Shown here: in pieces, positions 14,001 through 61,140 of the stretch | Position numbering within the stretch: the first letter of the stretch is position 1 | How the letters are laid out: every line of letters starts with the position of its first letter | Source: Trichothermofontia sichuanensis B231 | Lineage (GTDB): Bacteria; Cyanobacteriota; Cyanobacteriia; B231 | NCBI RefSeq assembly: GCF_026240635.1 | Contig: NZ_CP110848.1 | Location: 3,119,741-3,183,740, forward strand | Length of the DNA stretch: 64,000 bases | Reading direction: 5' to 3' | Notes under the pieces: model-generated | The model's input: only the letters and a program-made list of their open reading frames with translations | Told to the model about the DNA's origin: nothing | Database searches by the model: none | Position numbers and translations under genes: made by a program

Positions 14001-14435
14001 TTAGAGCGTTGCCGATCCCTCGGCGTATTCGGCCTTATCGACAATATATTTGACAAAAGCAGGCGTGCCAGCAGCCGATCGCGTTAAATGCCAGGTTTGG
14101 TAGGCATCCATGATAATGCGATCGCTCGTGGCTGCCGGGGGAATCCAGCGACTCGCCTCCCAGCGGACCACCACCTTCACCTGGGTAATATCGCCTTCCG
14201 TTCCCACAATTTCAGCCGACTTCACTTCATGAACTTCATCAAAAAAGAGACCGATCGCCCGTTCATACCAACCCTTAAATCCTTCCCAACCCTCCACCGT
14301 AAATTCCGGCACCGTCAAGACAAAATTATCCGCAATTAACGGTTTATAGGACTCTAGCGGCGCATGAACATCGAGGAGTTTATACCAATCCGCAACAAAC
14401 GTATTGATCTCATCTTGGGTAAACGGCGTACTCAT
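14001..14435 (-). CDS. NTF2/SnoaL-like protein
   Basis: The ATG at 14435 with AAGGA upstream gives 144 residues; the longer frame begins inside a repeat and is rejected. The sequence (VADWYKLLDVHAPLESYKPL, then VKVVVRWEASRW) fits the alpha+beta cone of NTF2/SnoaL-fold proteins, which bind small hydrophobic ligands or act as cyclases, isomerases or dehydratases. No catalytic dyad can be assigned. It is the last of three co-directional genes (PfpI-like, ThDP enzyme, this), with 113 bases to the ThDP gene. A joint role in one pathway is inferred from context only. Confidence 0.75.
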   Translation of the reverse strand: MSTPFTQDEINTFVADWYKLLDVHAPLESYKPLIADNFVLTVPEFTVEGWEGFKGWYERAIGLFFDEVHEVKSAEIVGTEGDITQVKVVVRWEASRWIPPAATSDRIIMDAYQTWHLTRSAAGTPAFVKYIVDKAEYAEGSATL

Positions 14436-14477
14436 GACAACATCCTTAGAACGAGTGCAAATAAAAACAACTTCATG

Positions 14478-14535
14478 CCCCTTCGTGTCCTTCGTGCCTT
14501 GGTGGTAAAACCACAAAGACACAAAGGGCACAAAG
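14478..14535. repeat. Imperfect inverted repeat of the CACAAAG / CTTCGTG type
   Basis: The left arm (14478-14506, CTTCGTGTCCTTCGTGCC core) is imperfectly complementary to the right arm (14510-14535, ACCACAAAGACACAAAGGGC core). Related sequence occurs at 16291-16363, 47163-47191 and 57197-57222. Confidence 0.75.
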
Positions 14536-14548
14536 CTGAGTCAAAAAC

Positions 14549-16255
14549 CTACAAACCCGTCTGTTGACGAATCACATCAGGCTTAAAGCTACCGGGCACA
14601 ACCACATCGATCAAAAACGGTCCCTTATGGGCCATCGCCTGGGCGATCGCCGGCCCTACCTCCGCTGGCTTCTCCACCCGCATCGCCGGCACCCCCATTG
14701 CCTGAGAAAGCTGGGCAAACTGAATATCCGGATAGGACAGATCAAAACTCAAGGGATAATCATGAGCAGCGACCTGATTTTCCTTCCAATACTGCTCAAT
14801 ATTGAGTTGCAACAGCTTATAAGAACGGTTATTACAAATCACAAACTTGACATCCACGTTATACCGCGCCGCTGTCCATAGGGCCTGGATCGTGTACATA
14901 CTCCCGCCATCGCCTGTAAAGCCAATCACCGTCTTATCCGGGTTGGCCAGCTTCGCCCCGATGGCGCCGGGAATTCCCACCCCCAACGAACCACCCCGCG
15001 TCAGGAAGTAATGCTCCGGTTGCGTCGGTGGCAGATAACGCACCAGCGCTGGCGAACTGGTCAGCGCCTCATCGAAGATAATCACATCTTCCGGCAGATG
15101 GGGCACCAACTCCTCCATAAAGCGAGAGAATTGGAGCGGCACCTGATCCCGCACAGCGCGATCGGCCTCCAGCGCCGCTGCCCGTTTACTTTCTTTTTGT
15201 TGCCGAAGCGCTTCCATCCGGGCCTGGGCCGCCTGCTGCTGTTCCGGCGTCAGGATTTGTGCCAACGCCGTTGCCAACTTCGCCAGCGTCAACTTGGGAT
15301 CACTCACCAGGCCCAAATCCACCGGATGATTCTTGGCGATTTCGTAGGCGTTCAGATCCACATGCACCACCTTCGCGCCCGGTGCGAAAACAGTCCCTAA
15401 TTCTGGGAACACCTCCGGCACGATATAGGTACCTGTTACCAGAATCGCGTCGCCCTTTTGCAAAATCGGCAAACTTTGGAAGCCGAACATGTGGCCCGTC
15501 GCGCCCTGGTAGAGCGGATGGGTATAGCTCATGTTGACTTCGCCGTTATCGCATTCCCACACCTCAGCCCCCAGCAACTCGGCCACCCGCGTCAGTTCCG
15601 CCTGGGCACCAGCGTAGGCAACCCCATCCCCAATGAAAATCATCGGCGTTTGGCCGGCGGCTAATAATTGCGCTGCTTCTTTGATGAGGGCCTCATCGGG
15701 GACGACACGGGTGGACGGGAAAGACGTGGGGACGATCGGCTCCACGGTCGGCTGATCGAGAATGTCCTGGGGCAGACAGACATAAACTGGACCCATTGGC
15801 GGAGTGGCAGCAATCTTAATCGCCCGCCGTAAGACCCGCAGGACTGAGGACGGGTCCATCACCAGGGTGGACCATTTGGTGACGGGTTCGGCAAAGGCCA
15901 CGAGATCCCCAGCCATTTGGGCATCCATCGCCATGTACTTGATCCCGGCATCGCCGCCAATAACAACCAGGGGCGCATGACCCCGTTTGGCCTGGTAGAG
16001 GGCACCAATGCCATTGCCCACGCCGGGGGTGCTGTGCAGTTGGACGATCGTCGGTTTCTTGGTGGCTCTGGCGTAGCCGTCGGCTAGCATTACAGCTACG
16101 CTTTCTTGGAGGGTGAGAATGTATTTCATCTCCGGGTAGACGGCGATCGCATCGAGGAACCCCTGCTCGACCGTGCCGGGGTTGCCAAACATATAGTGAA
16201 TGCCATCGGCGAGCAATTGCTCAATAATGGCGAAGCGACCAGTTTTTTGTGTCAT
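14549..16255 (-). CDS. ThDP-dependent decarboxylase/synthase, benzoylformate-decarboxylase-like
   Basis: The start at 16255 (AGGAAAT site upstream) gives 568 residues; the longer frame reads into a repeat. It has the three-domain ThDP fold: Glu51 in LTLQESVAVMLADGY (cofactor activation), His74 in LHSTPGVGNG, where benzoylformate decarboxylase has an active-site His, and the Mg/ThDP motif GDG (448-450) to NN (475-476). It probably decarboxylates a 2-oxo acid or joins an acyl unit to an aldehyde; the substrate is unknown. There is no FAD or regulatory subunit nearby, against acetolactate synthase. It lies between the PfpI-like and NTF2-like genes on the same strand. Confidence 0.85.
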   Translation of the reverse strand: MTQKTGRFAIIEQLLADGIHYMFGNPGTVEQGFLDAIAVYPEMKYILTLQESVAVMLADGYARATKKPTIVQLHSTPGVGNGIGALYQAKRGHAPLVVIGGDAGIKYMAMDAQMAGDLVAFAEPVTKWSTLVMDPSSVLRVLRRAIKIAATPPMGPVYVCLPQDILDQPTVEPIVPTSFPSTRVVPDEALIKEAAQLLAAGQTPMIFIGDGVAYAGAQAELTRVAELLGAEVWECDNGEVNMSYTHPLYQGATGHMFGFQSLPILQKGDAILVTGTYIVPEVFPELGTVFAPGAKVVHVDLNAYEIAKNHPVDLGLVSDPKLTLAKLATALAQILTPEQQQAAQARMEALRQQKESKRAAALEADRAVRDQVPLQFSRFMEELVPHLPEDVIIFDEALTSSPALVRYLPPTQPEHYFLTRGGSLGVGIPGAIGAKLANPDKTVIGFTGDGGSMYTIQALWTAARYNVDVKFVICNNRSYKLLQLNIEQYWKENQVAAHDYPLSFDLSYPDIQFAQLSQAMGVPAMRVEKPAEVGPAIAQAMAHKGPFLIDVVVPGSFKPDVIRQQTGL

Positions 16256-16290
16256 GGTTATTTCCTGGCGACTGCGTGGGTCGGGCAAGG

Positions 16291-16363
16291 CTCTCTGTGC
16301 TCTCTGTGTCTCTGTGGTGGGATCAACCACTAAGACACAACGGGCACAAAGGAACACAAAGAG
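16291..16363. repeat. Second CACAAAG-type inverted repeat
   Basis: Left arm 16291-16320 (CTCTGTG units ending GTGGTGG) and right arm 16327-16363 (CCACTAAGACACAACGGGC, then GGAACACAAAG) can pair imperfectly. It fills the gap between the PfpI-like and ThDP genes and resembles 14478-14535. Confidence 0.7.
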
Positions 16364-16365
16364 GA

Positions 16366-17190
16366 TTACCAGCCGTAGCGGGTGAGGCCCTTTTCCATGA
16401 CTTCGACCATTTTTTGGCCGGTGAGGTAGGAGTCGGGGGTGGAGCGTCCGGTGATGAAGGGGTAATCGACAATGACTGAGGTTTCTTTGCCGAAGTTACC
16501 GATGTAGGCACCGTCGGGGCCAGTGGCATCCCGCAGGATGAATTCCAGGGGATAGGGGGGGGGTCCCATGTTGAAGTCGGTGCCCAGGAAGCCGGTGCCG
16601 TCGTGGTAGTCGTATTCGATGCAGTGGCCGGTGACGTGTTTGCCCCAAATAATGCTCTTGCGGTTTTCAATTTCCCGCGCAAAAGCCAGACAGGCAACGC
16701 CGTAGCATTCGGCCCCGATCGGCTTATCCAGCTTCAAGAAGCCCAAGATTAGATCATGCACCCGCTGGTTATTGGCCAGATCAACGATCGGGCCACTGCC
16801 GCCGACAATCAGCATGGCGTCATACTGTTTCAGGTCTTCGTAAACCTTATCCAGCTTCTTGTAATACTCCTCCATCTCACGGATGAAGCGGGGGGAACTC
16901 CAATAGGGCCGTTCCGGTAGCCATTCGGACAGGTTGATCGGAAAGTTGAGGCGATCAGAAGCATCGAGTTCGCGCACCTTGCGGGCCACTTCTTCCGTGG
17001 TCACCGATCGTCCCAGGGGCGGATCGATATAACTGGCATCCATGCTGGGGGGTAGGGCATGGGGCCGCTTGCCCTTAGGGGTCGCAAAATCGACCTTGTA
17101 ACCGGCGGCATCAAATGTTTCGAGTGGACCCAGTAATTCCTCTCCCCAGTAGCCCCATTCTGACAAGATAATCAGAACCTTCTTGGACAT
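16366..17190 (-). CDS. DJ-1/PfpI superfamily protein (Hsp31/glyoxalase-like)
   Basis: The 274 residues show the class-I glutamine-amidotransferase-like fold: EELLGPLETFDAAGY near the N-terminus (conserved Glu) and YDAMLIVGGSGPIVDL. The nucleophile elbow is GAECYGVACLAF with Cys162. The elbow is unusual, since most DJ-1 relatives read A-C-H-G. Members act as glyoxalases, deglycases, isonitrile hydratases or chaperones. It is first of the three-gene minus-strand set with the ThDP enzyme and NTF2-like protein. A 285-base upstream gap (17191-17475) likely holds the promoter. An enzyme acting on a reactive carbonyl is the simplest inference. Confidence 0.82.
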   Translation of the reverse strand: MSKKVLIILSEWGYWGEELLGPLETFDAAGYKVDFATPKGKRPHALPPSMDASYIDPPLGRSVTTEEVARKVRELDASDRLNFPINLSEWLPERPYWSSPRFIREMEEYYKKLDKVYEDLKQYDAMLIVGGSGPIVDLANNQRVHDLILGFLKLDKPIGAECYGVACLAFAREIENRKSIIWGKHVTGHCIEYDYHDGTGFLGTDFNMGPPPYPLEFILRDATGPDGAYIGNFGKETSVIVDYPFITGRSTPDSYLTGQKMVEVMEKGLTRYGW

Positions 17191-17475: not shown

Positions 17476-18933
17476 TTACTTAACAAGGCGATCGTTGGGC
17501 AACCCCCAGGGTCCAAATTGCCGGGTACCAGCGGCAACGGGGACAATCGGTTCAGGCGAGGGGGTGACTGGGCGACCCAGCTTACCATCCAGGAGGGTTT
17601 CCAAGGCTGGCAGTAAGCGGTTGACTTGACGGGCGCGGATCAATACATCCCACATAGGTTCCAGTTTTTTCCAGGCTCCGGCGTAGAGGAGATGCCGAAG
17701 GCGATCGCGCCATTGCTCCTTGACCCAAGCCCCCTGGACAATATGGGACCACCGATAAAACTGCTCATAGGCCCGCCAATACCCCGCTTCCAGGACTTCG
17801 GGACGCATCTTCAGCGGTTGAAACACGGTATGGCGCGTATCGTAGAGATCCCAATTGGTATGTAAAAGGCGCTGCTGGGCCTGGATGCGATCGTAGAGGG
17901 CGGTCCCTGGATAGGGGGTCAAAATATGAAACGTGGCGGTTTCAATACCCTGTTGGACGGCCCACTCAACCGTGCGATCGAAGACATCGGGATCATCGTC
18001 ATCCATGCCAAAGACAAAACTGCCGTTAATCATGACCCCACGATCGTGCAGGCAGCGAATGGCTGCCGTGTAATCGCGATTGAGATTGTGGTATTTATGC
18101 TGTTGCCGGAGGTTCGTTGGATTCAGGGTTTCAAACCCAACAAAGAGGCTGCGCAGACCCGCATCCACCGCTTTTTCCAAGATCCCCGGTTGCAGGATCG
18201 ATTGAATCGTCGCCGCCGCCTGCCAAACCCGTCCCATCCCCCGCATTCCCTCGAACAAGGCCGCTGCAAATTGGGGATGGCCAAACAAATGATCGTCGAG
18301 AAAGTACAAATGGCGTCCCGGTAGGCGCTCTATTTCCGCCAGGGCATCGTCCACGGGTTGGGTGTAAAATGACTTGCCACCCTGGTAGAAGGCGTCTTTA
18401 TAACAAAAATCGCAGGCATGGGGGCACCCCCGCGATACCACGATCGAATTGGGAATCAGGTACAGGTGTCGCTTAATCAAATCCCGACGGATGGGCGGCA
18501 CCCCCACCAAACTGCGAATTTTTGATTGGTACATCGGGGCTGGCTGTCCGGCCCGAAAATCCCGTAAAAACTGGGGCCAGGTATCCTCACCAGGGCCGAG
18601 AAAAATCGTATCGGCATGGGCCTGGGCTTCCGTGGGCAACGCCGTCACATGGAGACCGCCCAGGCAGACATAGGCTCCCCGTTGCCGGTAGTGATCGGCC
18701 AATTCATAGGCATGGTAAGCCGAGGTGATATAAACCTGAATCACCACCAGGTCAGGTTCATCGTCCAGGTTCAACCTCTCCACGTGTTCGTCCTGGAGAT
18801 CAATCTCATCCGTGGGGTCGAAAAAACTGGCGATCGTGGCCAACCCCAGGGGCGGGAATAGGGAATACTTAATCGGTCGCCAGAAGGGGCTGAGCGCTTC
18901 CGTCAAAGCGGGCAAAATCATTTTGACCTTCAT
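17476..18933 (-). CDS. B12-binding-domain radical SAM protein
   Basis: Start ATG 18933 (MKVKMILPAL, with GGGAGCAT before it) gives 485 residues. Residues 1-130 form a cobalamin-binding-like domain (PPLGLATIASFF, VVIQVYITSAYHAYELAD, CLGGLHVT). The radical SAM cluster motif is Cys170-x3-Cys174-x2-Cys177 in SRGCPHACDFC. A strand-rich core (HLYFLDDHLFG, GSFVFGMDDDDP, TFHILTPYPGT) and a C-terminal helical domain follow. Members methylate or rearrange unactivated carbons in cofactor, lipid or pigment pathways. The substrate is not deducible; the neighbours are not functionally related. It is divergent from the helicase-like gene. Confidence 0.88.
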   Translation of the reverse strand: MKVKMILPALTEALSPFWRPIKYSLFPPLGLATIASFFDPTDEIDLQDEHVERLNLDDEPDLVVIQVYITSAYHAYELADHYRQRGAYVCLGGLHVTALPTEAQAHADTIFLGPGEDTWPQFLRDFRAGQPAPMYQSKIRSLVGVPPIRRDLIKRHLYLIPNSIVVSRGCPHACDFCYKDAFYQGGKSFYTQPVDDALAEIERLPGRHLYFLDDHLFGHPQFAAALFEGMRGMGRVWQAAATIQSILQPGILEKAVDAGLRSLFVGFETLNPTNLRQQHKYHNLNRDYTAAIRCLHDRGVMINGSFVFGMDDDDPDVFDRTVEWAVQQGIETATFHILTPYPGTALYDRIQAQQRLLHTNWDLYDTRHTVFQPLKMRPEVLEAGYWRAYEQFYRWSHIVQGAWVKEQWRDRLRHLLYAGAWKKLEPMWDVLIRARQVNRLLPALETLLDGKLGRPVTPSPEPIVPVAAGTRQFGPWGLPNDRLVK

Positions 18934-19156
18934 GGCTATGCTCCCGATGCCTTTCTCCCCAGTGTAGGGGAGAACCCCCAATCGCCCATGAGCAGATCTA
19001 CACCCTCCGCGATCGCCCACTGATCCCCGATCGCCACCAATCGCACCGTGTCCGTCGGAGTAATTCGGCTAGAGTTAAGAAGGAAGTTGTTCGGCAATCC
19101 CGTTGCCGCCAACTGACTCCTGTGGTCTCGCCGTGGTCATCCGGCCACCCCTGTCT

Positions 19157-50670: not shown

Positions 50671-50868
50671 GGTTAACTGACCCATCTTTTCCCCTTTCAC
50701 GAGGAGAGAGGACAGAGAACAGAGGACAGAGATAGTCGCTCAGTTGCCCTCGCTTCTCACTGCTCTATCCTCACTCCTAAATGCCTTCTCCCACCAGGGG
50801 CGAAGGGACTTTAACCCTCGCCCGCTCTGGGAGAGGGGTTGGGGTGAGGGCAGTCCGAGTTTTGTCAG
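50671..50868. repeat. Composite dispersed repeat, family 3, copy 3
   Basis: It starts GGTTAACTGACCCATCTTTT and includes AGAGAACAGAGGACAG and GGTGAGGGCAGTCCGAG. It matches 12991-13217. The rest of 50596-51375 has no gene; a 16-bp exact tandem duplication lies at 51273-51304 before the porin. Confidence 0.85.
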
Positions 50869-51375
50869 TCAGTCAGGGACTAGGGGACAGTGTCAGGGTG
50901 ATCGTACCACCGAGGTCTGTTGAGTGTGATCGCGCATAGGGGTCCCGTTGCCCCCCAACAGTGATCGCCAATCGGTTGATCAACTCATTGTACGAATCTG
51001 GCAAAATCCGGTATTGTACTATAAACATTTGAGCCGATGCGAGAAGAGACTGGTAACAGTCTGAATGGTGTTCAGTACGCATCTGGCAACGATCGCAGGT
51101 GCAGTCATCTTTCCAATAGTGTCACTTTGATATTGATTATTTTGGATTATTTTGCGATTGATCCTGCCTGCCTATGCGGTTCGTTGTTCTGATAAGAGGT
51201 ATTCAGGATAGGCCAACAACGAGCATAGGAGTTAGTGATTCACAACTGGTAACCACCGGTAAACCGATCGCGCTTAATACTGATGTACCTTAATACTGAT
51301 GTACCTAGCGATCGAACATCTGGGGGTAGGTCTTAGATAACGGGTCCCTTGGCAATGGTGCAAGTGTGGTGTGCT

Positions 51376-53199
51376 ATGAGTAACTCAAGAAGCTTTCCCT
51401 GGTTAAAGCAGCGTGGTAACAACTGGTTCGGGGTGAGGCGGGTGGGGTCCCTATCGCTGGCCAGCGGCCTGTTCGCGATCGCGGCTCCCGTGGCTACCGT
51501 TGCACTGGTGCCCGATACATCTGCAAGCGATCGGGTCTCCCCCTCCCTGTCTGCCCTAACGGCTGCTCGGGCCCAAGTAGTCTCCCCGGCTTTAGTGCCA
51601 CCGGTTTTAGGGACAGCGTTACTGCCTAAACCAACAATCCCGAAGACAGCGGCCAATCCGGGCACAAAACAGCTCACTCAGCGCCGCAGTCGTGCCCAGC
51701 GCACCTCGGTTACCCAACTGTCGGATGTGCAACCAACGGATTGGGCCTTCCAAGCCCTGCAATCGCTGGTGGAACGCTACGGGGTGATTGCGGGCTATCC
51801 CGATGGCACGTTCCGAGGTAACCGGGCCATGACCCGGTATGAGTTTGCTGCTGGCTTGAATGCTGCCCTCGATCGCGTGAGTGAGTTAATTGCCGAGGGG
51901 TTGGCCGATAAGGTTACCAAGGAAGATCTGGAAGCGCTACAACGGTTACAGGCGGAGTTTGCGACGGAACTAGCGACGCTGCGCGGACGGGTGGATGCCC
52001 TCGAAGGGCGGGTGGGCCTGCTGGAGATGTTGCAGTTTTCCACCACCACCAAGCTATCGGGGCAAGCCATCTTTGCCCTCAATGCTGGGTTCCAGGAGGG
52101 GGATTCGGTCATCGACGCCCAGAACTTTGACAAAATTGATGGCCGTGACCCCAATGCCACCTTCTTTAGCCGGGTGCGGTTGAACCTGAATACAACCTTT
52201 ACGGGTAAGGACTTGCTGTTGACCCAGTTACAGGCGGTGACCAGTACGGGAACGCCACGATCGAGCAATTCGCCTGGTTTAGGCTATGACGCTGCTGACT
52301 TCCTCGGCGATCGTTCCAGTAGCCTGTTCTATTCCCAGGGGATTCCAGGGGCCAACAATACCTTCCAACTGAATCGCCTGCGCTACACGTTCCCGATCAA
52401 TGCCGATCTGCAAGTGGCGATCTTCCCTCGCGCCTTCCCCACCGATTTTATTGACTACAACACCTTTGCCAACCGCCAGGGGGACAATGCCGATAACTTC
52501 TCGACGGAGGCGCTAACCAATAACATTCTGCTGTTTGCCCTGGATAATCCAGCAGCCGGGGCGGCGGTGACCTGGAATCCGAACGGGGGACGCTTTACCT
52601 TCCGGGCGGTCTATACGGCCCAGGACCCGGCGGTGCCCAATCCCACGGGCCTAGGGGGTGCACCGATTCCGATCACGGTGACCGATATCTACGGCAATCC
52701 CGATCGCAATAAACGGGGCGGGTTGTTTGGTGACCCCAACATTGGCTTTCTGGAGGCGGAATACAACTGGGGCAAGGGACGGGCGATCCGCTTGCAGTAT
52801 GCCGGGGGGTCCCAGGGAGGCAGTCGTTTCGCGGCGATCGGGGCCAATCTGGAATATGCCTTTACCCCCAAGGTGGGTTTCTTCGGACGCTTTGGCTACT
52901 CGCCCAACTTCCTGCCGATTCCCTTTGAGGGGATTGCCCCCACCTACTGGGCCGCAGGCTTAGCCTTCCCGGATTTGTTTAAGGAAGGCAACCAGGGCGG
53001 GATCGCGATCGCCCAGCCGTTGATCTTCCAGCATCCCGATATTGACCATACCCAGACCAACTACGAGGTCTACTACAACTACCGGGTGAGTGATCAGATT
53101 CGCATTACGCCCTTGCTCCAGGTGATTACCCATCCCCTCAGCCAGTCTGAGAATGGCACGGTGGTCACGGGCACCCTGCGAACCGTGTTCTCTTTCTAG
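51376..53199 (+). CDS. SLH-domain OprB-type outer-membrane porin (first of a pair)
   Basis: ATG 51376 (MSNSRSFPWLKQR) is preferred over 51349. A signal peptide (residues 27-48) is followed by one SLH domain (LSDVQPTDWAFQALQSLVER, then FRGNRAMTRYEFAAGLNAAL), a coiled coil (LEALQRLQAEFATELATLRG) and a beta-barrel ending in F (TGTLRTVFSF). This is the standard major porin of cyanobacteria, passing small ions and solutes, with SLH binding the cell wall. Some members are called iron-uptake porins. 607 residues. The barrel's terminal Phe suits BAM-mediated insertion. Confidence 0.92.
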   Translation: MSNSRSFPWLKQRGNNWFGVRRVGSLSLASGLFAIAAPVATVALVPDTSASDRVSPSLSALTAARAQVVSPALVPPVLGTALLPKPTIPKTAANPGTKQLTQRRSRAQRTSVTQLSDVQPTDWAFQALQSLVERYGVIAGYPDGTFRGNRAMTRYEFAAGLNAALDRVSELIAEGLADKVTKEDLEALQRLQAEFATELATLRGRVDALEGRVGLLEMLQFSTTTKLSGQAIFALNAGFQEGDSVIDAQNFDKIDGRDPNATFFSRVRLNLNTTFTGKDLLLTQLQAVTSTGTPRSSNSPGLGYDAADFLGDRSSSLFYSQGIPGANNTFQLNRLRYTFPINADLQVAIFPRAFPTDFIDYNTFANRQGDNADNFSTEALTNNILLFALDNPAAGAAVTWNPNGGRFTFRAVYTAQDPAVPNPTGLGGAPIPITVTDIYGNPDRNKRGGLFGDPNIGFLEAEYNWGKGRAIRLQYAGGSQGGSRFAAIGANLEYAFTPKVGFFGRFGYSPNFLPIPFEGIAPTYWAAGLAFPDLFKEGNQGGIAIAQPLIFQHPDIDHTQTNYEVYYNYRVSDQIRITPLLQVITHPLSQSENGTVVTGTLRTVFSF

Positions 53200-53304: not shown

Positions 53305-55644
53305 TTGAAGGTGTTTCGTCTTTTCGCTAATCGTTTACCAACCACGCTGGGGCTGAACGCCACCAGTTGGGTAGCAGTCTTAGCGGTTACAACTGTAGCC
53401 ACGGCCAATGAGGTTCCGGTTCCGTCAGTCAGCAGTTCGCAGACTGAGGGGGCACCTACTCCGGTAATGGGTGAAGCCCTTGGAACAGAAGCTGTCCCCG
53501 GCAACGCCCCAGAGGCCGTAGGTAACCGGGAACCCATCCCCGCGGCATCTACGGTCATCTCCCCGGATGAATCAGCCGAGTTACTGCCTGCCCCTGAGGT
53601 GACCCCAAATGCGAGCGATCGCGCCGTGTCTGCGCCGGAGCCTCGTCTGGTCACCGCCCCGGCGGCTTTAGCACCAGTTAGCTTTCCCACAATTTTGCCC
53701 AGCATCCGGAGTCCCCGACTGCGCACAACCGAGATGCTCGATCGCGTCGATCGCTACCTCAGCGGCGACAGCGAGAATGCCCTGCTTAACCAGGTGGATC
53801 AGTATGCGCAAGGAGCACCCCGTTTGGAAACTACCAGTGGTAACGCCCTGCTGGATCGGGTGGAGGAATATATCAATGAGACGGCGGTCATCGGCACCAA
53901 TCCGCAATTGTTCCAGATCGAAGCCTATGCCAATGAGGGCTACCTTGAGCCGCCCCTGACGTTCCAGGCCACTTCCCTGAACTTTCTGGAGGCTCATCCA
54001 ACTGTGGAGTGGGCCTTTGGCGAACCGATCGCGCTCCAGACAGACACCACTTCCCTGGCCCAGGTGACCTCGGTGGCCCAACTGTCGGATGTGGCCCCAA
54101 CGGAGTGGGCGTTCCAGGCCCTCCAATCCCTCATAGAGCGCTATGGAGTGATTGCGGGCTATCCCAATGGGACCTATCGTGGTCATCGTTTTCTGACTCG
54201 CTATGAATTTGCGGCGGGCCTCAACGCGGCAATGGATCGGATCAATGAACTGGTGGCCCAGGGCAGTGTCGATCTCGTTAACAAGGCAGATCTCGAAACC
54301 CTCCAGCGCCTCCAGGAGGAATATCAGACCGAACTGGACGCGATCGCGGCTAAGGTGGATGGCCTCGAAGGCCGCACGATGGCGCTGCTGACCGATCGCT
54401 TCTCCACCACCGCCAAGCTCTTTGGTCTGGCTTTCTTCAACGTGACTGGCCTAGCAGGAGCCGAGGGGGTACTGCGGGAAACGGGCCAGCGGGTATTACC
54501 GGGCGTCAAATCGCCGCCAGTGGTCCAGGAAATCGAACGCAACCCGAATGTGACCTCGGCGGGGTTGGTGTGGCTGAACCTGGGGGCTTCGTTCACAGGT
54601 AAGGATTTGCTGATCACCCAACTGGCGGCTGGGCAAGGGGTTTCACCGGCTAATGACATTACCTCCCTCACCTCAACGGTGAACAATACGGGAATCCCTT
54701 TTACCGATGCGGGTGCCTTCCTGGGTCCCAACGCCAAGGTGGTGTTGCGGGAGATGGTTTATGAGTTCCCAATGGGGGCGGCACGGTTGGCGATCGGGCC
54801 ACGGATCAACTGGTTTCGCTTTTTTGATGAAAACCGCTTTACGTTCTTCCTCAATGGCACAACCACCTTAAACCAGATTGCCAATCCCCTGACCAACGAT
54901 GTCCGGCGGGGAGCGGGCGCGATCGTGCGTTTACCGCTGGGTAATCAGGTGCGTCTGGGCTTGGGTTACCTGGCGGAAAGTAACGAATTCGTCGATTTTA
55001 ATTCTGCGTCAGTCCCCACCGAAGGACTTTTTGGCGGCACCAATAGCCTGACGGCAGAATTGGCCTTTAACCCCAGCCCCAACTTTAGCCTCAAGTTCCT
55101 CTACAACCGCCTCAACCAGCAGGCCCGTCAGGTCACCATCAACAGTGTCCCGATCGACACCAACAAGTACATTAGCGGCGTGCCGATCAATGGGATTGCC
55201 GATGATGGTGCCGGTGGGTCCTTACGCAATGCCCAATCTGATATTTTCCAGGTCAACACGGAGTGGCTAGTGACCCCACGCTTTGGCCTGTTTGGTCGCT
55301 ACGGGATTGCCCAGACCCATTTGAATGCCGTCGACGACGATCGGGATGGTTCAATTACGACCCAGAGCTTCCAGGTGGGCATGGCCTTCCCGGATTTATT
55401 CAAGCAGGGAGCCGTGGGGACCTTAGCCTTGATGATGCCGTTTAACTATACCCGTGGTCGCCAATACCTGGTCTCAGGTGGCGGCGATGGCGGCACCCAG
55501 TACGAACTGGAAGGAACCTATTTCTGGCCAGTGACCCCTAACATCGCAATTATTCCCAATTTCCAGGTGATTTTTAATATCAATAATTTTGAAACCAATC
55601 CAACCATTTTTATCGGTAATCTACGGACCCAATTTAGTTTTTAG
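53305..55644 (+). CDS. SLH-domain OprB-type outer-membrane porin (second of a pair, long N-terminal region)
   Basis: The start is TTG 53305 (or GTG 53311) with GGGGTAGGG upstream. It has 779 residues. The signal segment is near 15-30, then an extended region of about 220 residues absent from the first porin. Within it, two related Asp-Arg-Val-Asp/Glu-Tyr units (LDRVDRYLSG, LDRVEEYINE) repeat. An SLH domain (LSDVAPTEWAFQALQSLIER) and coiled coil follow, then a barrel ending LRTQFSF. Its spacing to the first porin is 105 bases and they are probably one transcript. Duplication and divergence is inferred. Confidence 0.88.
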   Translation: MKVFRLFANRLPTTLGLNATSWVAVLAVTTVATANEVPVPSVSSSQTEGAPTPVMGEALGTEAVPGNAPEAVGNREPIPAASTVISPDESAELLPAPEVTPNASDRAVSAPEPRLVTAPAALAPVSFPTILPSIRSPRLRTTEMLDRVDRYLSGDSENALLNQVDQYAQGAPRLETTSGNALLDRVEEYINETAVIGTNPQLFQIEAYANEGYLEPPLTFQATSLNFLEAHPTVEWAFGEPIALQTDTTSLAQVTSVAQLSDVAPTEWAFQALQSLIERYGVIAGYPNGTYRGHRFLTRYEFAAGLNAAMDRINELVAQGSVDLVNKADLETLQRLQEEYQTELDAIAAKVDGLEGRTMALLTDRFSTTAKLFGLAFFNVTGLAGAEGVLRETGQRVLPGVKSPPVVQEIERNPNVTSAGLVWLNLGASFTGKDLLITQLAAGQGVSPANDITSLTSTVNNTGIPFTDAGAFLGPNAKVVLREMVYEFPMGAARLAIGPRINWFRFFDENRFTFFLNGTTTLNQIANPLTNDVRRGAGAIVRLPLGNQVRLGLGYLAESNEFVDFNSASVPTEGLFGGTNSLTAELAFNPSPNFSLKFLYNRLNQQARQVTINSVPIDTNKYISGVPINGIADDGAGGSLRNAQSDIFQVNTEWLVTPRFGLFGRYGIAQTHLNAVDDDRDGSITTQSFQVGMAFPDLFKQGAVGTLALMMPFNYTRGRQYLVSGGGDGGTQYELEGTYFWPVTPNIAIIPNFQVIFNINNFETNPTIFIGNLRTQFSF

Positions 55645-55726: not shown

Positions 55727-55835
55727 TATGGTCAATCTAAATAAAAACGATACAATTTTTGACTCCCCTCTCCCGCTCTGGGAGAGGGGTGGGGGGGTGA
55801 GGGTGCTGTTTCAGCCTAAATTACAAGGACTATAG
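55727..55835 (-). mobile_element. MITE-like repeat, copy D (109 bp)
   Basis: It starts TATGGTCAATCTAAATAAAA and ends CAGCCTAAATTACAAGGAC-TATA, with the central CCTCTCCCGCTCTGGGAGAG palindrome. It is in the reverse orientation relative to copies A and B. The other 320 bases up to 56159 show no gene. Confidence 0.83.
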
Positions 55836-56159: not shown

Positions 56160-56582
56160 ATGTCTAGCAACGTTGAAGTTGTTGAAAAGATGTACCACTG
56201 CTTTAAGTCCGGTGATATGGAGACCCTTAAAGCAGAGGTATTTGCGGAAGATTTGCAGTGGCATTTGCCCGGTCATCATCCCCTGGCCGGTACCAAAAAG
56301 GGTGTAGCCGAAGTTCTAGCTTTTTTTGGGCGTCTGCGTGCTTTGGGGTTGCAAGTGACACCTGTGGGGATAGGTGAACTGAACTCTGGGGGTGTGGTAG
56401 AAGTGTATACAGCCACTGGTGAGGTGAATGGGGCAAAGTTGAATGCTTTTAATTGCAATTACTATACGGTGCGGGATGGCCGGATTGTCGAGGTGCAGGT
56501 GCTCATGGCGGATCAACATGGCTATGATGCCTTTTTCTGGCAAGCCTATCAGTTGAAACCGATTCCCGATCGCCTGGTCTAG
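56160..56582 (+). CDS. SnoaL/NTF2-like protein 1 of the array
   Basis: The 140 residues (EVVEKMYHCFKSGDMETLKA, then WHLPGHHPLAGTKKGVAEVL, and YYTVRDGRIVEVQVL) show the SnoaL-like ligand-binding cone. The His-Pro-Leu-Ala-Gly segment and a conserved Asp (LMADQHGYDAFFW) are family-typical. Such domains bind small lipophilic or aromatic molecules as cyclases or isomerases. TGAGGAGAAA is a good ribosome site. It begins the array with 157 bases to the next gene. Confidence 0.82.
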   Translation: MSSNVEVVEKMYHCFKSGDMETLKAEVFAEDLQWHLPGHHPLAGTKKGVAEVLAFFGRLRALGLQVTPVGIGELNSGGVVEVYTATGEVNGAKLNAFNCNYYTVRDGRIVEVQVLMADQHGYDAFFWQAYQLKPIPDRLV

Positions 56583-56739
56583 CCGCTAGTGATGGTAACG
56601 CAGCGGTACAGTGATATGGTCACTTAACCTATCTGGACGATCAGGCGATCGCATCTGCCCCAGTACTGCCCCTGGATGGATCCTACTGACCTGATATTTG
56701 CTCATTCTGTTTGCTCATTCTGAGAAAAGGAAAATTACT

Positions 56740-57168
56740 ATGACTCCGGTTGAAGAGCGAAATGTGGCCTGTTTCAATCGTTTCGTTGAGGAAGGGTTGA
56801 ATCAAAAGAAAATTGGCAGCATGGTTGAAGAGATTGTGGCCCATAACCTAATTATGGAAGCGCCAGGGGTGCCCATGATGGATGGCCGCCTCAATGGGAT
56901 GGAAATTTTTCGCTTCTTTACAACAGCCTTTATTGAGGCGTTTCCAGATGTGAAGTGTGCGTTGGCCCACTGTATTGCTGAAGGGGATGTGGTGGCGGTA
57001 GATATCCTCTATGAGGGCACGCACGCAAAGGAATTTGCAGGTGTACCGGCAACGAATAAATATATCAAGGGGGGGGAACTTTGGTTTATGAAGTTTGCCA
57101 ATGGCAAGATCCGGCATCTGCGGATTTGTGAGTATGGGACGCCGCTGCGTAATATGTTGTTGGAGTAG
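56740..57168 (+). CDS. SnoaL-type ester cyclase-like protein 2 of the array
   Basis: The ATG at 56740, preceded by AAAAGGAAA, gives 142 residues; the upstream frame from 56698 spans a 13-bp tandem duplication (56697-56722). The sequence MTPVEERNVACFNRFVEE, EAFPDVKCALAHCIAEGDVV and YEGTHAKEFAGVPATNKYI matches the SnoaL/ester-cyclase family. FAGVPATNK resembles the FAGFAPTNK of the next gene, so these two are close paralogues. Confidence 0.87.
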   Translation: MTPVEERNVACFNRFVEEGLNQKKIGSMVEEIVAHNLIMEAPGVPMMDGRLNGMEIFRFFTTAFIEAFPDVKCALAHCIAEGDVVAVDILYEGTHAKEFAGVPATNKYIKGGELWFMKFANGKIRHLRICEYGTPLRNMLLE

Positions 57169-57301
57169 GGCTTTGCAAGCGGGGAATGACGTAGGAACCA
57201 CCAAAACACTAAGGACACGAAGTAGGACGGAGTATTATTCTGGGATTTCTACGATTTAATTAAGTGGATGACGCTGATGTTTACGATTATGGGAGTAGGT
57301 C

Positions 57302-57718
57302 ATGACGCCGGAAGTGTGTAAGTCGGTATTGGCAACGCTGTTTGATGAGGTGCTGACCCAAGATAAGCAGGAGATGATTGATGTTCTCTATGATGAAAGC
57401 TATGAGTTTATTGTGCCGAAGCTGGCGGGGATGACTAGTAATGTGGTCCAGGGTCGGGAGAATTTTAAGAAACGGGTGACGGCGTTCCGGCAGGCGTTTC
57501 CAGATGTGATTTATGCGATCGATGATTTTGTCTCAAATGGCGAGATTGTGGCAACCAGTTTTACCTTCACTGGTACCCATACGGGTGAGTTTGCTGGTTT
57601 TGCACCGACTAACAAGAAGGTCTCTGTAACTGGCATCCACTTTGCCCAACTCAAGGACGGCAAAATCGTCAAAACCTGGGCTGGCTTTACCAATATTGCA
57701 GAAGTCCTAGCTTCCTAA
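57302..57718 (+). CDS. SnoaL-type ester cyclase-like protein 3 of the array
   Basis: The 138 residues (VLATLFDEVLTQDKQEMIDV, RQAFPDVIYAIDDFVSNGEI, GTHTGEFAGFAPTNKKVSVT) are a SnoaL-type domain. ATG at 57302 after GGGAGTAGG. The GTHTGEFAG motif recurs here and in gene 4. A CACTAAGGACAC short repeat (57197-57222) lies between genes 2 and 3. The substrate is unknown. Confidence 0.87.
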   Translation: MTPEVCKSVLATLFDEVLTQDKQEMIDVLYDESYEFIVPKLAGMTSNVVQGRENFKKRVTAFRQAFPDVIYAIDDFVSNGEIVATSFTFTGTHTGEFAGFAPTNKKVSVTGIHFAQLKDGKIVKTWAGFTNIAEVLAS

Positions 57719-57888
57719 GCGCTATACCGCTTGTGGGGTAGGCATCCTGTCTATCTACTTGAGTTACCGGCTAGCGACCCATTGCATCATTTGAAATCAC
57801 AACTCAAGCTGGGAGGTTTTAACTGATTAGAGGTCTATTCGACTCGATCCAATCGCTGTTTAACTCGCCCTTTACCCGACTCCTCACC

Positions 57889-58767
57889 ATGTCTGTTGTA
57901 GAAGAAAACAAAGCCTTGGCTCGTCGGTACTATGCTGAACTCATGAGTACTGGGGATCTGTCCTTTGTAGACAACTACTTTGCTCCAGAGTTTGAGTTCA
58001 CTAACCCGACCCATACTGAACCCTATCGCGGGCAGGAATTCAAAGATCTGGTCACGATGCTGCGGGGGGCTTTCCCCGATCTCAAGTTTACGGTCGAACA
58101 CATGGTCGCCGAGGGTGACACCGTTGTTGGCCACTGGACCGCCCGCGGCACCCATTCTGGCGGCCCCCTCAAAACCCTGCGCGGTGACTTACCGGCTAAG
58201 GGCTATCAGTTCGCGATCGATGGGGTGTCTTGGCTGCGGATCGTCAATGGCAAGTTTGTTGAAGCCCGGATTAACGAAGAAACCCTGGGACTTCTGCGCC
58301 AGATCGGGGCACTGCCGACGCCGGAACCCCTGCCCCAACCGACTACCCCCGAACAGAATGCAGTTTTGGTCGATCGCTACTTCAACGAAGTTTTGAATGG
58401 CCGCAATCTGTCTATCCTGGCGGAAATTACCACCGAACAAGTCACTCACCGAATTCCGACTCTCTCCAAAGATTTGAAGGGGCGGGAAGCCACGGAGGCC
58501 CTGATTCGTGAAGTCCATGCCGCCTTCCCAGACTTGCAGTTTGAGGTCGAACGTCAGGTCGCAGAAGGCAATAAGGTCGCTAGTCGTTGGTATATGAGCG
58601 GTACCCATACAGGTGCGCCGTTCCTCGGTGTACCAGCATCGGGAAACCCTGTAAAGGATCAAGGGGTCGATTTGTTTATCTTTTCGCCAGAAGGCAAAAT
58701 TGCGGAAATTTGGACCAATGAGGACAGTCTGGGCTTACTGCGCCAATTGGGAGCCTTTGGTTCCTAA
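57889..58767 (+). CDS. Fused double SnoaL protein 4 of the array
   Basis: The 292 residues contain two SnoaL domains in tandem: 1-145 (MSVVEENKALARRYYAELM, then AFPDLKFTVEHMVAEGDTVV, GTHSGGPLKTL) and 155-292 (VDRYFNEVLNGRNLSILAEI, HAAFPDLQFEVERQVAEGNK, GTHTGAPFLGVPASG). Each half keeps the AFPDL and GTH motifs. Both end with the related LGLLRQIGA / LGLLRQLGA sequence, so the gene arose by internal duplication. It may form a single pseudo-dimer, where the other proteins form dimers. Confidence 0.88.
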   Translation: MSVVEENKALARRYYAELMSTGDLSFVDNYFAPEFEFTNPTHTEPYRGQEFKDLVTMLRGAFPDLKFTVEHMVAEGDTVVGHWTARGTHSGGPLKTLRGDLPAKGYQFAIDGVSWLRIVNGKFVEARINEETLGLLRQIGALPTPEPLPQPTTPEQNAVLVDRYFNEVLNGRNLSILAEITTEQVTHRIPTLSKDLKGREATEALIREVHAAFPDLQFEVERQVAEGNKVASRWYMSGTHTGAPFLGVPASGNPVKDQGVDLFIFSPEGKIAEIWTNEDSLGLLRQLGAFGS

Positions 58768-59167
58768 TCCCTGCCGTCGCCAACGCATTGGTGCTGCTGA
58801 TGTTTAATCCCCAACAGGTTCAATCAAAGACAGTACCACTCAACAAAGCCAATGGATCGGGTCGGGTCCTCAAGGTCAACTAACTCAACTAACCCAGGAG
58901 AGCGCGATCGTTAACCCTCACCCCCGGCCCCTCTCCTGGCCCCCTTGGCCCCCCAAACGGAGGTAGAACCAGAGGCCTGAGATTGATTGCCCTTCTCTAG
59001 GCTTCTCCCGGCTGGCGAGAACTGAAGTCAGAAATTCTGACAGTTTCCCCTTCTCCCGGATTGGGGGAAGGGGCTAGGGGATGAGGGGGCTAGCGTCATG
59101 ACACCCACCGACTATTCACCCCCAATCACTAGGTACACATCACTAGGTACAAAACCAGGTACAAATA
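58768..59167. other. Intergenic before the flavoenzyme
   Basis: About 400 bases. 58916-59090 contains C-rich and G-rich halves (CTCACCCCCGGCCCCTCTCC ... GGGGCTAGGGGATGAGGGGG) that could pair, like other repeat cores in the window. Short tandem-like ATCACTAGGTACA units (59126-59165) precede the start. No gene was seen. Confidence 0.55.
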
Positions 59168-60751
59168 ATGTCCTCCTACGACGCTATTCTCATCGGCAGC
59201 GGCCCCAATGCCCTAGTCAATGCGGCTTACCTGACCCAAGCGGGTTGGAGTGTGCTGATCCTGGAGCGTAACCCCCGTCCGGGCGGCGGTATGCAAACCG
59301 GCGAACTCACCCTCCCCGGCTTCACCCATGACCTCTATGCTGGGTACCTGATCCTCTTCGCCCTCTCCCAGGCTAACCGGGACTTTGGGGCGGAACTGCA
59401 AAAGCGGGGTCTCAATATGGTAGGGACCCAATACCCTGCTGGTGTGTCCATGCCAGGGGGGAAAACCGCGGTGATTGCCACCGATATGGCGGCGAATATC
59501 GCCGAAGCTGAGCGACTGGCTCCGGGGGATGGGGCGGGTTGGCAGCAGATGATCCAGACTATTGGACAACACGCAGAATCGGTCTTTGCGCTGCTGAACA
59601 TGGATCTGAGTTCACCCGCAGCTCAGGCGCTCCAGCGACAACTCATGGTCACCCCCGATGGCGCACCGACCCCCTTTGCCCAGGACTTTCTCCTATCCGC
59701 TCGGGATGTGCTGGAGTCGCTCTATACCTCGGAAACTTGGCGCGGGATCTTGGCCCCCTGGGTGTTGCACAGTGGCCACGGACCGGAGGATGCCAACAGT
59801 GGTTTCTGGACCCATGTGTTTGCCCTGGGGTTGCAGTCGGCGGGGCAGTTTGTCGCGGTGGGTGGCACCGAGATGTTGGCGAAGGCATTGGTGCAACTGA
59901 TCGAGGATCAGGGGGGCACGGTCAAAACGGGAGCCAGTGTCAGCCGGATTCTGGTGGAGAATGGACGGGCGATCGGGGTTCAGACCGAAGCTGGTGAAAC
60001 CTACCGTGCCAACCGGGTCGTCCTGGCCACCACAACTCCAGAACAACTGTACTTAAATCTACTGAGCGAGGACGATGCCCCGGCTGCGGTGCGTCAGCAG
60101 GCCCAGAAATACCGCTACGGGCACAGCGTGTTCTTTGTCCACCTCGCCCTGGACGAACCCCTGCATTGGGTTGATGAGCGGCTGGACCAGGTGATTTATA
60201 CCCACATCACCAATGGATTAGACGGAGTATCGCGTAACTATAACGAAACCATGCGCCGTCTGCTGCCTGCCGATCCGGTGATTGGCGTGGGACTGCCCAG
60301 TATTCTTGACCCCTCCCGTGCACCGGCGGGGAAAGCTGTAGCTGTCTTGCAGGTACTGGATGTGCCTTTCCGGTTTAAGGGGGATGCTGCGGGTGAAATT
60401 GATGTTGGTGAAGGGGTTTGGCATGAGGATGTGAAAAATCGCTTTGCCGATCGCGTGATCGACATTGCCAGTCAGCATATTCCCAACCTGAAATCAGCGA
60501 TACTGGCCCGCGCGATCGTCACGCCACCGGATTTAGTGCGTTACAACCGCAATTGGCAAAACGGCGATCCCTACAGCGGGTCTCATGATATTGCCCAGAG
60601 CTATTGGCTGCGGCCCTTCTCGGCAGCCTCTAGCTATCGGACAGTGATTCCTAATTTGTACCTAATCGGTGCGGCCACTTTCCCTGGCTTGGGGTTAGGT
60701 GGGGCCTCTGGCTATATTGTTGCTCAACAATTGTTGAAAGCAGGTATCTAA
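59168..60751 (+). CDS. CrtI/PYROXD2-like FAD-dependent oxidoreductase
   Basis: The 527 residues begin with the FAD dinucleotide motif ILIGSGPNALVNAAYLTQAG and LERNPRPGGGMQTGELTLPG. They end with YLIGAATFPGLGLGGASGYI, the FAD-binding C-terminal motif of phytoene-desaturase/CrtO-type enzymes. Members desaturate or ketolate carotenoids or oxidise long lipophilic substrates. The overall pattern is nearer to PYROXD2-like proteins than to CrtI proper. It follows the SnoaL array on the same strand, 400 bases away. Acting on the same lipophilic compound as the SnoaL proteins is inference. Confidence 0.85.
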   Translation: MSSYDAILIGSGPNALVNAAYLTQAGWSVLILERNPRPGGGMQTGELTLPGFTHDLYAGYLILFALSQANRDFGAELQKRGLNMVGTQYPAGVSMPGGKTAVIATDMAANIAEAERLAPGDGAGWQQMIQTIGQHAESVFALLNMDLSSPAAQALQRQLMVTPDGAPTPFAQDFLLSARDVLESLYTSETWRGILAPWVLHSGHGPEDANSGFWTHVFALGLQSAGQFVAVGGTEMLAKALVQLIEDQGGTVKTGASVSRILVENGRAIGVQTEAGETYRANRVVLATTTPEQLYLNLLSEDDAPAAVRQQAQKYRYGHSVFFVHLALDEPLHWVDERLDQVIYTHITNGLDGVSRNYNETMRRLLPADPVIGVGLPSILDPSRAPAGKAVAVLQVLDVPFRFKGDAAGEIDVGEGVWHEDVKNRFADRVIDIASQHIPNLKSAILARAIVTPPDLVRYNRNWQNGDPYSGSHDIAQSYWLRPFSAASSYRTVIPNLYLIGAATFPGLGLGGASGYIVAQQLLKAGI

Positions 60752-60767: not shown

Positions 60768-60998
60768 ATGGCGGGGATGCTACGCGACAAGATTCGGCTG
60801 CGCAAATGAGCCGTGATTGAATCCGTCGATGACCAGTTGAAGAACATCTGTCAGATTGGGCATTCCCGGCATCGCCGTGTGTACAACTTCCTGGTCAACC
60901 TGCTGGCGGGCTTGGTGGCCTATACCTATCAGCCGCGCAAACCCAGCTTGGACCTCGACGACCAAGGCTTACCCGCTCTGCCTCCCGCTATCTTTTAA
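60768..60998 (+). pseudogene. C-terminal scrap of an IS982-family transposase
   Basis: The frame MLRDKIRLRK[24 protein letters not shown], then [21 protein letters not shown], matches the C-terminus of IS982-type transposases. A TGA at 60807-60809 replaces the expected Arg codon, and the DDE core is missing. The 60-codon ORF at 60813 is the remaining open part and not a real gene. Confidence 0.8.
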
Positions 60999-61140
60999 AC
61001 CCGTCGAACTCACGTAGGGTTGAAGTCCCTTCGCTCCTGGTGGGAAAAGCGATTTAGGGATGAGGGGAAAATCAGGTAACCAGGGTCAGAGACATGGGAG
61101 GATAGTATCGATCGCTATTCATTAAGTCCTACCTCACGTC

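What the first reader, a model, noticed from the sequence alone, without database searches (positions are those of the whole stretch)
56160..60751. Array of five SnoaL/NTF2 domains in four genes followed by a CrtI/PYROXD2-like flavoenzyme
Four same-strand genes (56160, 56740, 57302, 57889) encode five SnoaL-type domains, with a flavoenzyme after them. SnoaL proteins usually occur singly. Repeated motifs (AFPDL, GTHTGEFAG, FAG-PTNK) show local amplification. SnoaL-fold proteins bind lipophilic ligands; the NTF2-like C-terminal domain of the orange carotenoid protein is a distant example, and CrtI relatives act on carotenoids. A lipophilic or carotenoid-derived metabolite pathway or sensor set is possible but unproven.
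Basis: partly seen in the sequence, partly recalled or inferred. Interest (0 to 1): 0.68.

Follow-up and report, generated by a model that had tools for sequence, protein, structure and literature searches.

The report
Displaced block of conserved SnoaL cluster
The five small SnoaL-type domains and the flavin enzyme next to them are one piece of a large gene cluster of unknown product, shared by cyanobacteria and several unrelated bacterial groups, and they are probably not a carotenoid pathway.

Summary
In detail: four same-strand genes encode five SnoaL-family domains, followed by a CrtI-superfamily flavoenzyme (FLV). They are not a recent local amplification. The domains are 13-36% identical to each other, and each has its own orthologues elsewhere.

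The array is a colinear, displaced segment of a roughly 20-gene locus. In Leptolyngbyaceae CSU_1_3 the order is ThDP enzyme, two OprB porins, F05, S1, S2, (contig break), S3, S4, FLV, alpha/beta-hydrolase, GMC oxidoreductase, further NTF2-like genes, QOR, DJ-1, VOC, AGE, STAS, GlgX. The host has the same parts in three blocks, two of them in this window. In 37 named loci carrying S4 (Bacteroidota, cyanobacteria including Prochlorococcus, Chloroflexota, Proteobacteria), 33 hold ThDP, GMC or large DJ-1 genes beside it.

FLV is accessory. It follows the SnoaL block in all three genomes found (host, CSU_1_3, Pleurocapsales LEGE 06147) but is absent from 35 of 37 loci. It scores 215 bits against CrtO's cut-off of 1000; true CrtOs exceed 1000. 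No carotenoid gene was recognised at the locus.

Best reading: a multi-step carbonyl/redox pathway, probably linked to sugar or glycogen metabolism through icfG-type regulators. The substrate is unknown. I found no description of the locus in the open-access papers searched.

The parts
51349..53199 (+). OprB-family porin with SLH domain (OprB_a)
   Evidence: Pfam OprB 1.4e-20 and SLH; 60% identical to the first of two OprB genes at the same place in the CSU_1_3 locus
53305..55644 (+). OprB-family porin with SLH domain (OprB_b)
   Evidence: Pfam OprB 1.6e-23 and SLH; 56% identical to the second OprB gene of the CSU_1_3 locus
56160..56582 (+). S1: single SnoaL_2 domain protein
   Evidence: Pfam SnoaL_2 46.6 bits; orthologue in CSU_1_3 (segments 77-83% identical), frame-shifted there, in the same position
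56740..57168 (+). S2: single SnoaL domain protein
   Evidence: Pfam SnoaL 73 bits; 75% identical orthologue directly after S1 in CSU_1_3
57302..57718 (+). S3: single SnoaL domain protein; Thr where most single SnoaL domains of these loci have Asp
   Evidence: Pfam SnoaL 87.7 bits; 81% identical orthologue before S4 in CSU_1_3; Thr also in both orthologues
57889..58767 (+). S4: fused tandem SnoaL protein (S4a about 57889-58320, S4b about 58321-58764)
   Evidence: Two Pfam SnoaL stretches; AlphaFold2 mean pLDDT 91.8 with two NTF2 folds; orthologous double proteins in four phyla
59168..60751 (+). FLV: FAD enzyme of the CrtI superfamily, not CrtO by the curated cut-off
   Evidence: crtI_fam 147 bits, CrtO model 215 of 1000 bits; 72% and 68% orthologues directly after SnoaL genes in CSU_1_3 and LEGE 06147; fold nearest gamma-carotene desaturase 4rep and CrtI 4dgk
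14001..14441 (-). F05: NTF2/SnoaL_2-like protein, a displaced part of the same locus
   Evidence: Weak SnoaL_2 (0.00033); family present in 27 of 37 S4 loci
14549..16357 (-). ThDP-dependent enzyme (benzoylformate decarboxylase / acetolactate synthase superfamily), a displaced part of the same locus; the true start is probably downstream of the first GTG
   Evidence: TPP_enzyme N, M and C domains; GDG...NN motif present; family in 27 of 37 S4 loci
16366..17190 (-). Large DJ-1/PfpI (ThiJ_like) protein, a displaced part of the same locus
   Evidence: Pfam ThiJ_like 3.1e-22; family in 29 of 37 S4 loci

Best explanation
Shown: the SnoaL array plus flavoenzyme is a colinear, displaced segment of a conserved locus. 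That locus encodes a ThDP C-C bond enzyme, a GMC oxidoreductase, two DJ-1/PfpI proteins, a VOC/glyoxalase-like protein, several NTF2/SnoaL-fold proteins, OprB porins in cyanobacteria, and the AGE-STAS-GlgX-anti-sigma kinase-PP2C module known from the icfG cluster. In the host the locus is split over three chromosomal places. Inferred: it makes or detoxifies a small carbonyl compound in several steps, probably derived from sugar or glycogen. The GMC and ThDP enzymes do oxidation and C-C bond making or breaking, and the DJ-1 and VOC proteins handle reactive aldehydes or hydroxyketones. Each SnoaL-fold protein catalyses one cyclisation, isomerisation, hydration or dehydration, or holds one intermediate. 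In S4 relatives the first domain usually keeps the SnoaL acid and the second usually has Asn, as in a catalytic plus partner pair, although the host pair (Glu, Asp) departs from this. FLV is an extra FAD dehydrogenase or oxidase added in a few cyanobacteria, with an alpha/beta-hydrolase, to process an additional hydrophobic or unsaturated intermediate.
For: Synteny: CSU_1_3 has ThDP-OprB-OprB-F05-S1-S2 at the end of one contig and S3-S4-FLV-ABH-GMC-F06-SnoaL-QOR-DJ1-VOC-TMEM175-AGE-STAS-GlgX at the start of another. The host has OprB-OprB-S1-S2-S3-S4-FLV here, F05/ThDP/DJ-1 at 14001-17190, and GMC-F06-SnoaL-DJ1-VOC-AGE-STAS-GlgX-HATPase-SpoIIE phosphatase at C1:2378000-2389112. Of 37 named S4 loci, ThDP is in 27, GMC in 30, DJ1L in 29, AGE in 27, VOC in 24, small DJ-1 in 23, and at least one of ThDP, GMC or DJ1L in 33. 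Among cyanobacterial genomes S4 occurs in 9 of 388 and the ThDP orthologue in 19 of 376, with 6 shared, hypergeometric p about 5.5e-7 (phylogeny not corrected). Tree: S4a, S4b and S2/S3 group with genes of other genomes, mostly by position. SnoaL acid column: D in 36 of 37 first domains, N in 34 of 37 second domains, D in 71 of 76 singles. The icfG operon of Synechocystis carries AGE (Slr1855), STAS (Slr1856), GlgX, IcfG and Slr1861 and acts in carbon regulation (PMC8670252, PMC12329169).
Against: No substrate, product, expression or mutant datum exists for this locus. The sugar/glycogen link rests on neighbours (GlgX, AGE, OprB) and on published work about a related Synechocystis operon that I did not compare gene by gene. 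GlgX is within the fetched flank in only 15 of 37 loci. In the host the pieces are apart, so co-regulation is not shown. The 400-bp gap before FLV may separate transcription units. FLV is absent from most such loci, so a role in the core pathway is unlikely. The host S4 pair does not show the usual D/N pattern.
Confidence: 0.58

Rival explanations
1. Carotenoid or lipophilic metabolite pathway or sensor set: FLV desaturates or ketolates a carotenoid-derived compound and the SnoaL proteins bind the products, as the OCP C-terminal domain binds carotenoid.
For: FLV is in the CrtI superfamily; the best fold matches are gamma-carotene desaturase 4rep and CrtI 4dgk. FLV is always beside the SnoaL block (3 of 3 genomes).
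Against: FLV fails the CrtO cut-off by a wide margin. No other carotenoid gene was recognised in any of the annotated loci. SnoaL domains match polyketide-cyclase-type proteins, not OCP-type NTF2. 35 of 37 S4 loci lack FLV.
Confidence: 0.1
2. Secondary-metabolite (natural product) cluster in the strict sense: SnoaL proteins act as cyclases or epoxide hydrolases on an elaborate scaffold, like the tandem Lsd19 or SnoaL and SnoaL2.
For: Sequence and fold matches to IdmH, SnoaL2, AclR, TsrD and to the two-domain epoxide hydrolase Lsd19. An NmrA-type SDR and an ABM domain are present in some loci. A C39-ABC/HlyD exporter lies at the ThDP end in L025, L027 and L139.
Against: No PKS, NRPS or terpene synthase was seen in the annotated loci. 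The locus is widely conserved and tied to GlgX/AGE/STAS, and occurs in streamlined Prochlorococcus, which is unusual for a specialised metabolite.
Confidence: 0.2
3. Chance neighbours: a local tandem amplification of SnoaL genes with an unrelated flavoenzyme downstream.
For: Gaps of 133-400 bp between genes; the wider host locus is broken up.
Against: Same order of seven genes in CSU_1_3 and FLV after SnoaL genes in LEGE 06147; domains are old paralogues with separate orthologues.
Confidence: 0.04

Closest known systems
[quoted passage not shown] PCC 6803 (slr1852-slr1862; PMC8670252, PMC12329169)
   Same: Published members are AGE (Slr1855), STAS anti-sigma antagonist (Slr1856), GlgX, IcfG phosphatase and Slr1861 anti-sigma kinase. 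The host block C has AGE, STAS, GlgX, HATPase and SpoIIE-type phosphatase genes side by side.
   Different: The passages read do not mention a SnoaL array, ThDP enzyme, GMC oxidoreductase, OprB porins or FLV in that operon. The window block itself holds none of the icfG genes.
SnoaL-family polyketide cyclases and hydroxylases (SnoaL, SnoaL2, AclR, IdmH, TsrD)
   Same: Same fold and family; HMM and Foldseek matches with about 24-29% identity; an acid at the presumed catalytic position in most single domains.
   Different: No polyketide synthase seen at the locus; several paralogues together; S3 has Thr and most second domains of S4 relatives have Asn at that position.
Lsd19-type fused double SnoaL-fold epoxide hydrolases
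   Same: Two SnoaL/NTF2 folds in one chain (Foldseek ranks 2 and 3).
   Different: 18% identity over the pair; the relative domain arrangement differs (rmsd over both domains about 12 A); no polyether cluster.
CrtO beta-carotene ketolase / CrtI phytoene desaturase family
   Same: FAD superfamily and fold.
   Different: 215 bits against a 1000-bit CrtO cut-off; below the crtI_fam cut-off (147 against 238 bits); about 30% identity to true cyanobacterial CrtOs.

Membership tests
SnoaL family (PF07366/PF12680) | Score above the Pfam gathering cut-off | tested here: met
   S1-S4 all above cut-off for at least one of the two models
SnoaL family (PF07366/PF12680) | Alpha+beta barrel (NTF2) fold | tested here: met
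   AlphaFold2 of S4, mean pLDDT 91.8; Foldseek to SnoaL-type structures, target-normalised TM up to 0.90
SnoaL-type polyketide cyclase (functional) | Catalytic Asp (SnoaL Asp121, residue number from memory) | tested here: inconclusive
   Column mapped through IdmH and 3f9s alignments; host S4b D, S4a E, S3 T, S2 and S1 uncertain
SnoaL-type polyketide cyclase (functional) | Polyketide synthase partner genes | tested here: not met
   None recognised among the genes of the annotated loci
CrtO beta-carotene ketolase | NF045689 equivalog cut-off of 1000 bits | tested here: not met
   215, 237 and 226 bits for FLV and its two orthologues; true CrtOs 1012 and 1118
CrtI superfamily FAD enzymes | TIGR02734 full-length match and CrtI-like fold | tested here: inconclusive
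   Full-length match, but 147 bits is under the 238-bit cut-off; fold matches 4rep and 4dgk
OCP C-terminal-domain-like carotenoid binder | Match to the NTF2 (PF02136) family or to OCP structures | tested here: not met
   No PF02136 match at E 0.01; no OCP among the 50 best fold matches
OCP C-terminal-domain-like carotenoid binder | Binds a carotenoid | not testable with these tools
   Needs purified protein
icfG-type locus | AGE, STAS, GlgX, anti-sigma kinase and PP2C adjacent | tested here: met
   Met by host block C at C1:2378000-2389112, not by the window block itself

The most novel reading that the evidence does not exclude
An undescribed pathway of about 20 genes, shared by Cyanobacteria, Bacteroidota, Chloroflexota and Proteobacteria and controlled by an icfG-type partner-switching module. 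It uses a set of non-redundant SnoaL-fold enzymes, including a fused pair in which the second domain has usually lost the acid, to carry a sugar-derived carbonyl compound through successive steps. Some cyanobacteria extend it with a CrtI-superfamily flavoenzyme of new specificity.
Probability: 0.4. Interest if true: 0.78.

Novelty: new variant of a known kind. Interest (0 to 1): 0.58.

Why it matters
The array is a handle on a large, widely shared locus whose parts are usually annotated one by one as 'SnoaL-like', 'DJ-1/PfpI' or 'GMC oxidoreductase'. If the parts act together, this is a conserved pathway of unknown product, probably tied to an operon (icfG) already known to regulate carbon use in cyanobacteria. 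Its function could be tested in a culturable Dyadobacter or Hymenobacter strain with the locus in one piece. It also warns against reading a CrtI-like neighbour as evidence for carotenoid chemistry.

Tried and rejected
Recent local amplification: rejected by domain identities and the tree. FLV as CrtO: rejected by curated cut-offs. OCP-like carotenoid binding by the SnoaL domains: no sequence or fold support. Composite transposon around the block, suggested by a 50-nt inverted repeat at 50769 and 61016: rejected because the repeat is a dispersed family with 55 hits in the genome. Promoter and terminator scans: no more hits than in shuffled sequence, so uninformative. Literature: no paper found that describes the locus, but only open-access papers could be searched.
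Full report
Check of the observation. S1-S3 are single SnoaL-family domains and S4 is a fused pair, all above Pfam's cut-offs. AlphaFold2 gives two confident NTF2/SnoaL folds for S4 (mean pLDDT 91.8, low only at the linker 145-150). FLV is a full-length CrtI-superfamily FAD protein. The host genome is one 4.44-Mb contig and holds ten SnoaL_2 matches in all. Five are in this array, two in another cluster at C1:2386.5-2387.4 kb, and one weak match (F05) is elsewhere in this window.

Not a local amplification. The five domains are 13-36% identical pairwise. In a tree of 150 domains, S4a groups with the first domains of other double proteins from cyanobacteria, Bacteroidota and Chloroflexota (38 rows, 100/97). 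S4b groups with second domains (26 rows, 80/87), and S2 and S3 group with S3 of CSU_1_3 and two single genes of Pleurocapsales LEGE 06147 (100/98) (few columns, and the long branch makes the place of S2 unsure). S1, S2 and S3 have orthologues at about 80%, 75% and 81% in CSU_1_3. The motifs AFPDL and GTHTGEF are family signatures, seen also in unrelated solved structures.

The wider locus. Neighbourhoods of S4 relatives share a set of genes: large DJ-1/PfpI, ThDP enzyme, GMC oxidoreductase, two further NTF2-like families (F05, F06), small DJ-1/PfpI, VOC, an AGE-domain protein, STAS and GlgX (identified). In 37 named loci: GMC 30, DJ1L 29, ThDP 27, F05 27, AGE 27, F06 25, VOC 24, small DJ-1 23, GlgX 15, STAS 13; 33 have ThDP, GMC or DJ1L (several loci are truncated by contig ends, and many are closely related Dyadobacter). 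Among sampled cyanobacteria the locus is patchy: S4 in 9 of 388, ThDP in 19 of 376, GMC in 9 of 376 genomes. Six of the nine S4 genomes also have ThDP at the strict threshold (hypergeometric p about 5.5e-7, uncorrected for phylogeny).

The host's version. Leptolyngbyaceae CSU_1_3 carries the locus on two contigs: ThDP (frame-shifted in the MAG)-OprB-OprB-F05-S1 (frame-shifted in the MAG)-S2 at a contig end, then S3-S4-FLV-ABH-GMC-F06-SnoaL-QOR-DJ1-VOC-TMEM175-AGE-STAS-GlgX from the start of another. That the two contigs adjoin is inferred. The window block OprB-OprB-S1-S2-S3-S4-FLV has the same order apart from F05, with one-to-one OprB orthologues (60% and 56%). The missing parts are at window 14001-17190 (F05, ThDP, DJ1L) and at C1:2378000-2389112 (GMC, F06, SnoaL, DJ1, VOC, AGE, STAS, GlgX, HATPase, SpoIIE phosphatase). 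The alpha/beta-hydrolase orthologue lies alone at C1:2598674 (51%). Where it would follow FLV, the window shows a transposase-like remnant with a stop (from the sequence; family read by eye; one search shows another frame with stops).

The flavoenzyme. Close orthologues were found only in CSU_1_3 (72%) and LEGE 06147 (68%), both directly downstream of SnoaL genes and both followed by the alpha/beta-hydrolase. In a survey of 388 genomes of the class, the next matches are 33-34% identical and not near SnoaL genes (L117, L118). Its score against the CrtO equivalog is 215 bits with a cut-off of 1000; true CrtOs in the same phylum score 1012 and 1118. It is therefore a distinct CrtI-superfamily enzyme, accessory to the locus.

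Mechanism (inferred). The ThDP enzyme keeps GDG...NN and a QES motif consistent with the catalytic Glu, and the GMC protein keeps the HPAGTCKMG and NTH motifs (motif roles from general knowledge). In the SnoaL domains the column aligned to the Asp of IdmH-type proteins is D in 36 of 37 first domains, N in 34 of 37 second domains and D in 71 of 76 singles; S3 and its orthologues have T. This fits a set of non-redundant enzymes with one partner domain. The host S4 (E, D) departs from the D/N rule. GMC, ThDP, DJ-1 and VOC together point to carbonyl chemistry. GlgX, AGE and OprB, with the icfG link (PMC8670252, PMC12329169), point to sugars. I did not test any substrate. The salt-stress paper reports the Synechocystis operon slr1852-1862 as salt-repressed, and the New Phytologist paper ties icfG to a carbon-signalling cascade; the passages read in neither describe SnoaL genes in it.

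Verdict. The carotenoid reading is unlikely. Function unknown in detail; novelty lies in the locus, not in any single family.

Noticed in passing
window 14001-17190 (-): F05 NTF2-like, ThDP enzyme and large DJ-1/PfpI genes: another block of the same conserved locus, 34 kb away in the same window.
   Followed up: yes
G000:C1:2378000-2389112 (L032): GMC, F06, SnoaL, DJ-1, VOC, AGE, STAS, GlgX, anti-sigma kinase-like HATPase and PAS-SpoIIE phosphatase genes in one run: an icfG-type cluster joined to the SnoaL-locus genes.
   Followed up: yes
window 17476-19020 (-) and L032:11798-13375 (-): B12-binding radical-SAM-like genes (read by eye) lie just upstream of two of the three host blocks; possible coincidence.
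   Followed up: no
L139:1-8733; L025:14633-19001; L027:1230-6012: A C39-peptidase ABC exporter, HlyD protein and CRP-like protein (read by eye) lie at the ThDP end of the locus in three genomes of one family. In L139 two small peptides with a GG-type leader (DELDDVAGG, DELDTVAGG) lie between them and ThDP.
   Followed up: no
L105-L108, L116: A sister form of the locus in other cyanobacteria: DJ-1, ThDP, an NTF2-like protein, EthD-like repeat protein, a second GMC type, ankyrin-SnoaL fusion, VOC, DJ-1, GlgX, AGE (partly read by eye).
   Followed up: partly
window 60770-61010 (+): Transposase C-terminus remnant with a stop codon directly after FLV, where CSU_1_3 and LEGE 06147 have an alpha/beta-hydrolase.
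   Followed up: partly
window 50769-50844, 55766-55795, 61016-61065: GC-rich dispersed repeat family with 55 hits in the genome lies on both sides of this block; similar GC-rich sequence also fills the gap before FLV (about 58915-59090).
   Followed up: partly
L071-L073, L075 (Prochlorococcus single cells): Reduced forms of the locus (double SnoaL, single SnoaL, GMC, GlgX, AGE; DJ-1 and ThDP in three of the four) occur in some streamlined Prochlorococcus.
   Followed up: partly
L052: A contig binned as Alphaproteobacteria is nearly identical to Runella sp. CRIBMP across the cluster, probably a mis-binned Bacteroidota contig.
   Followed up: no
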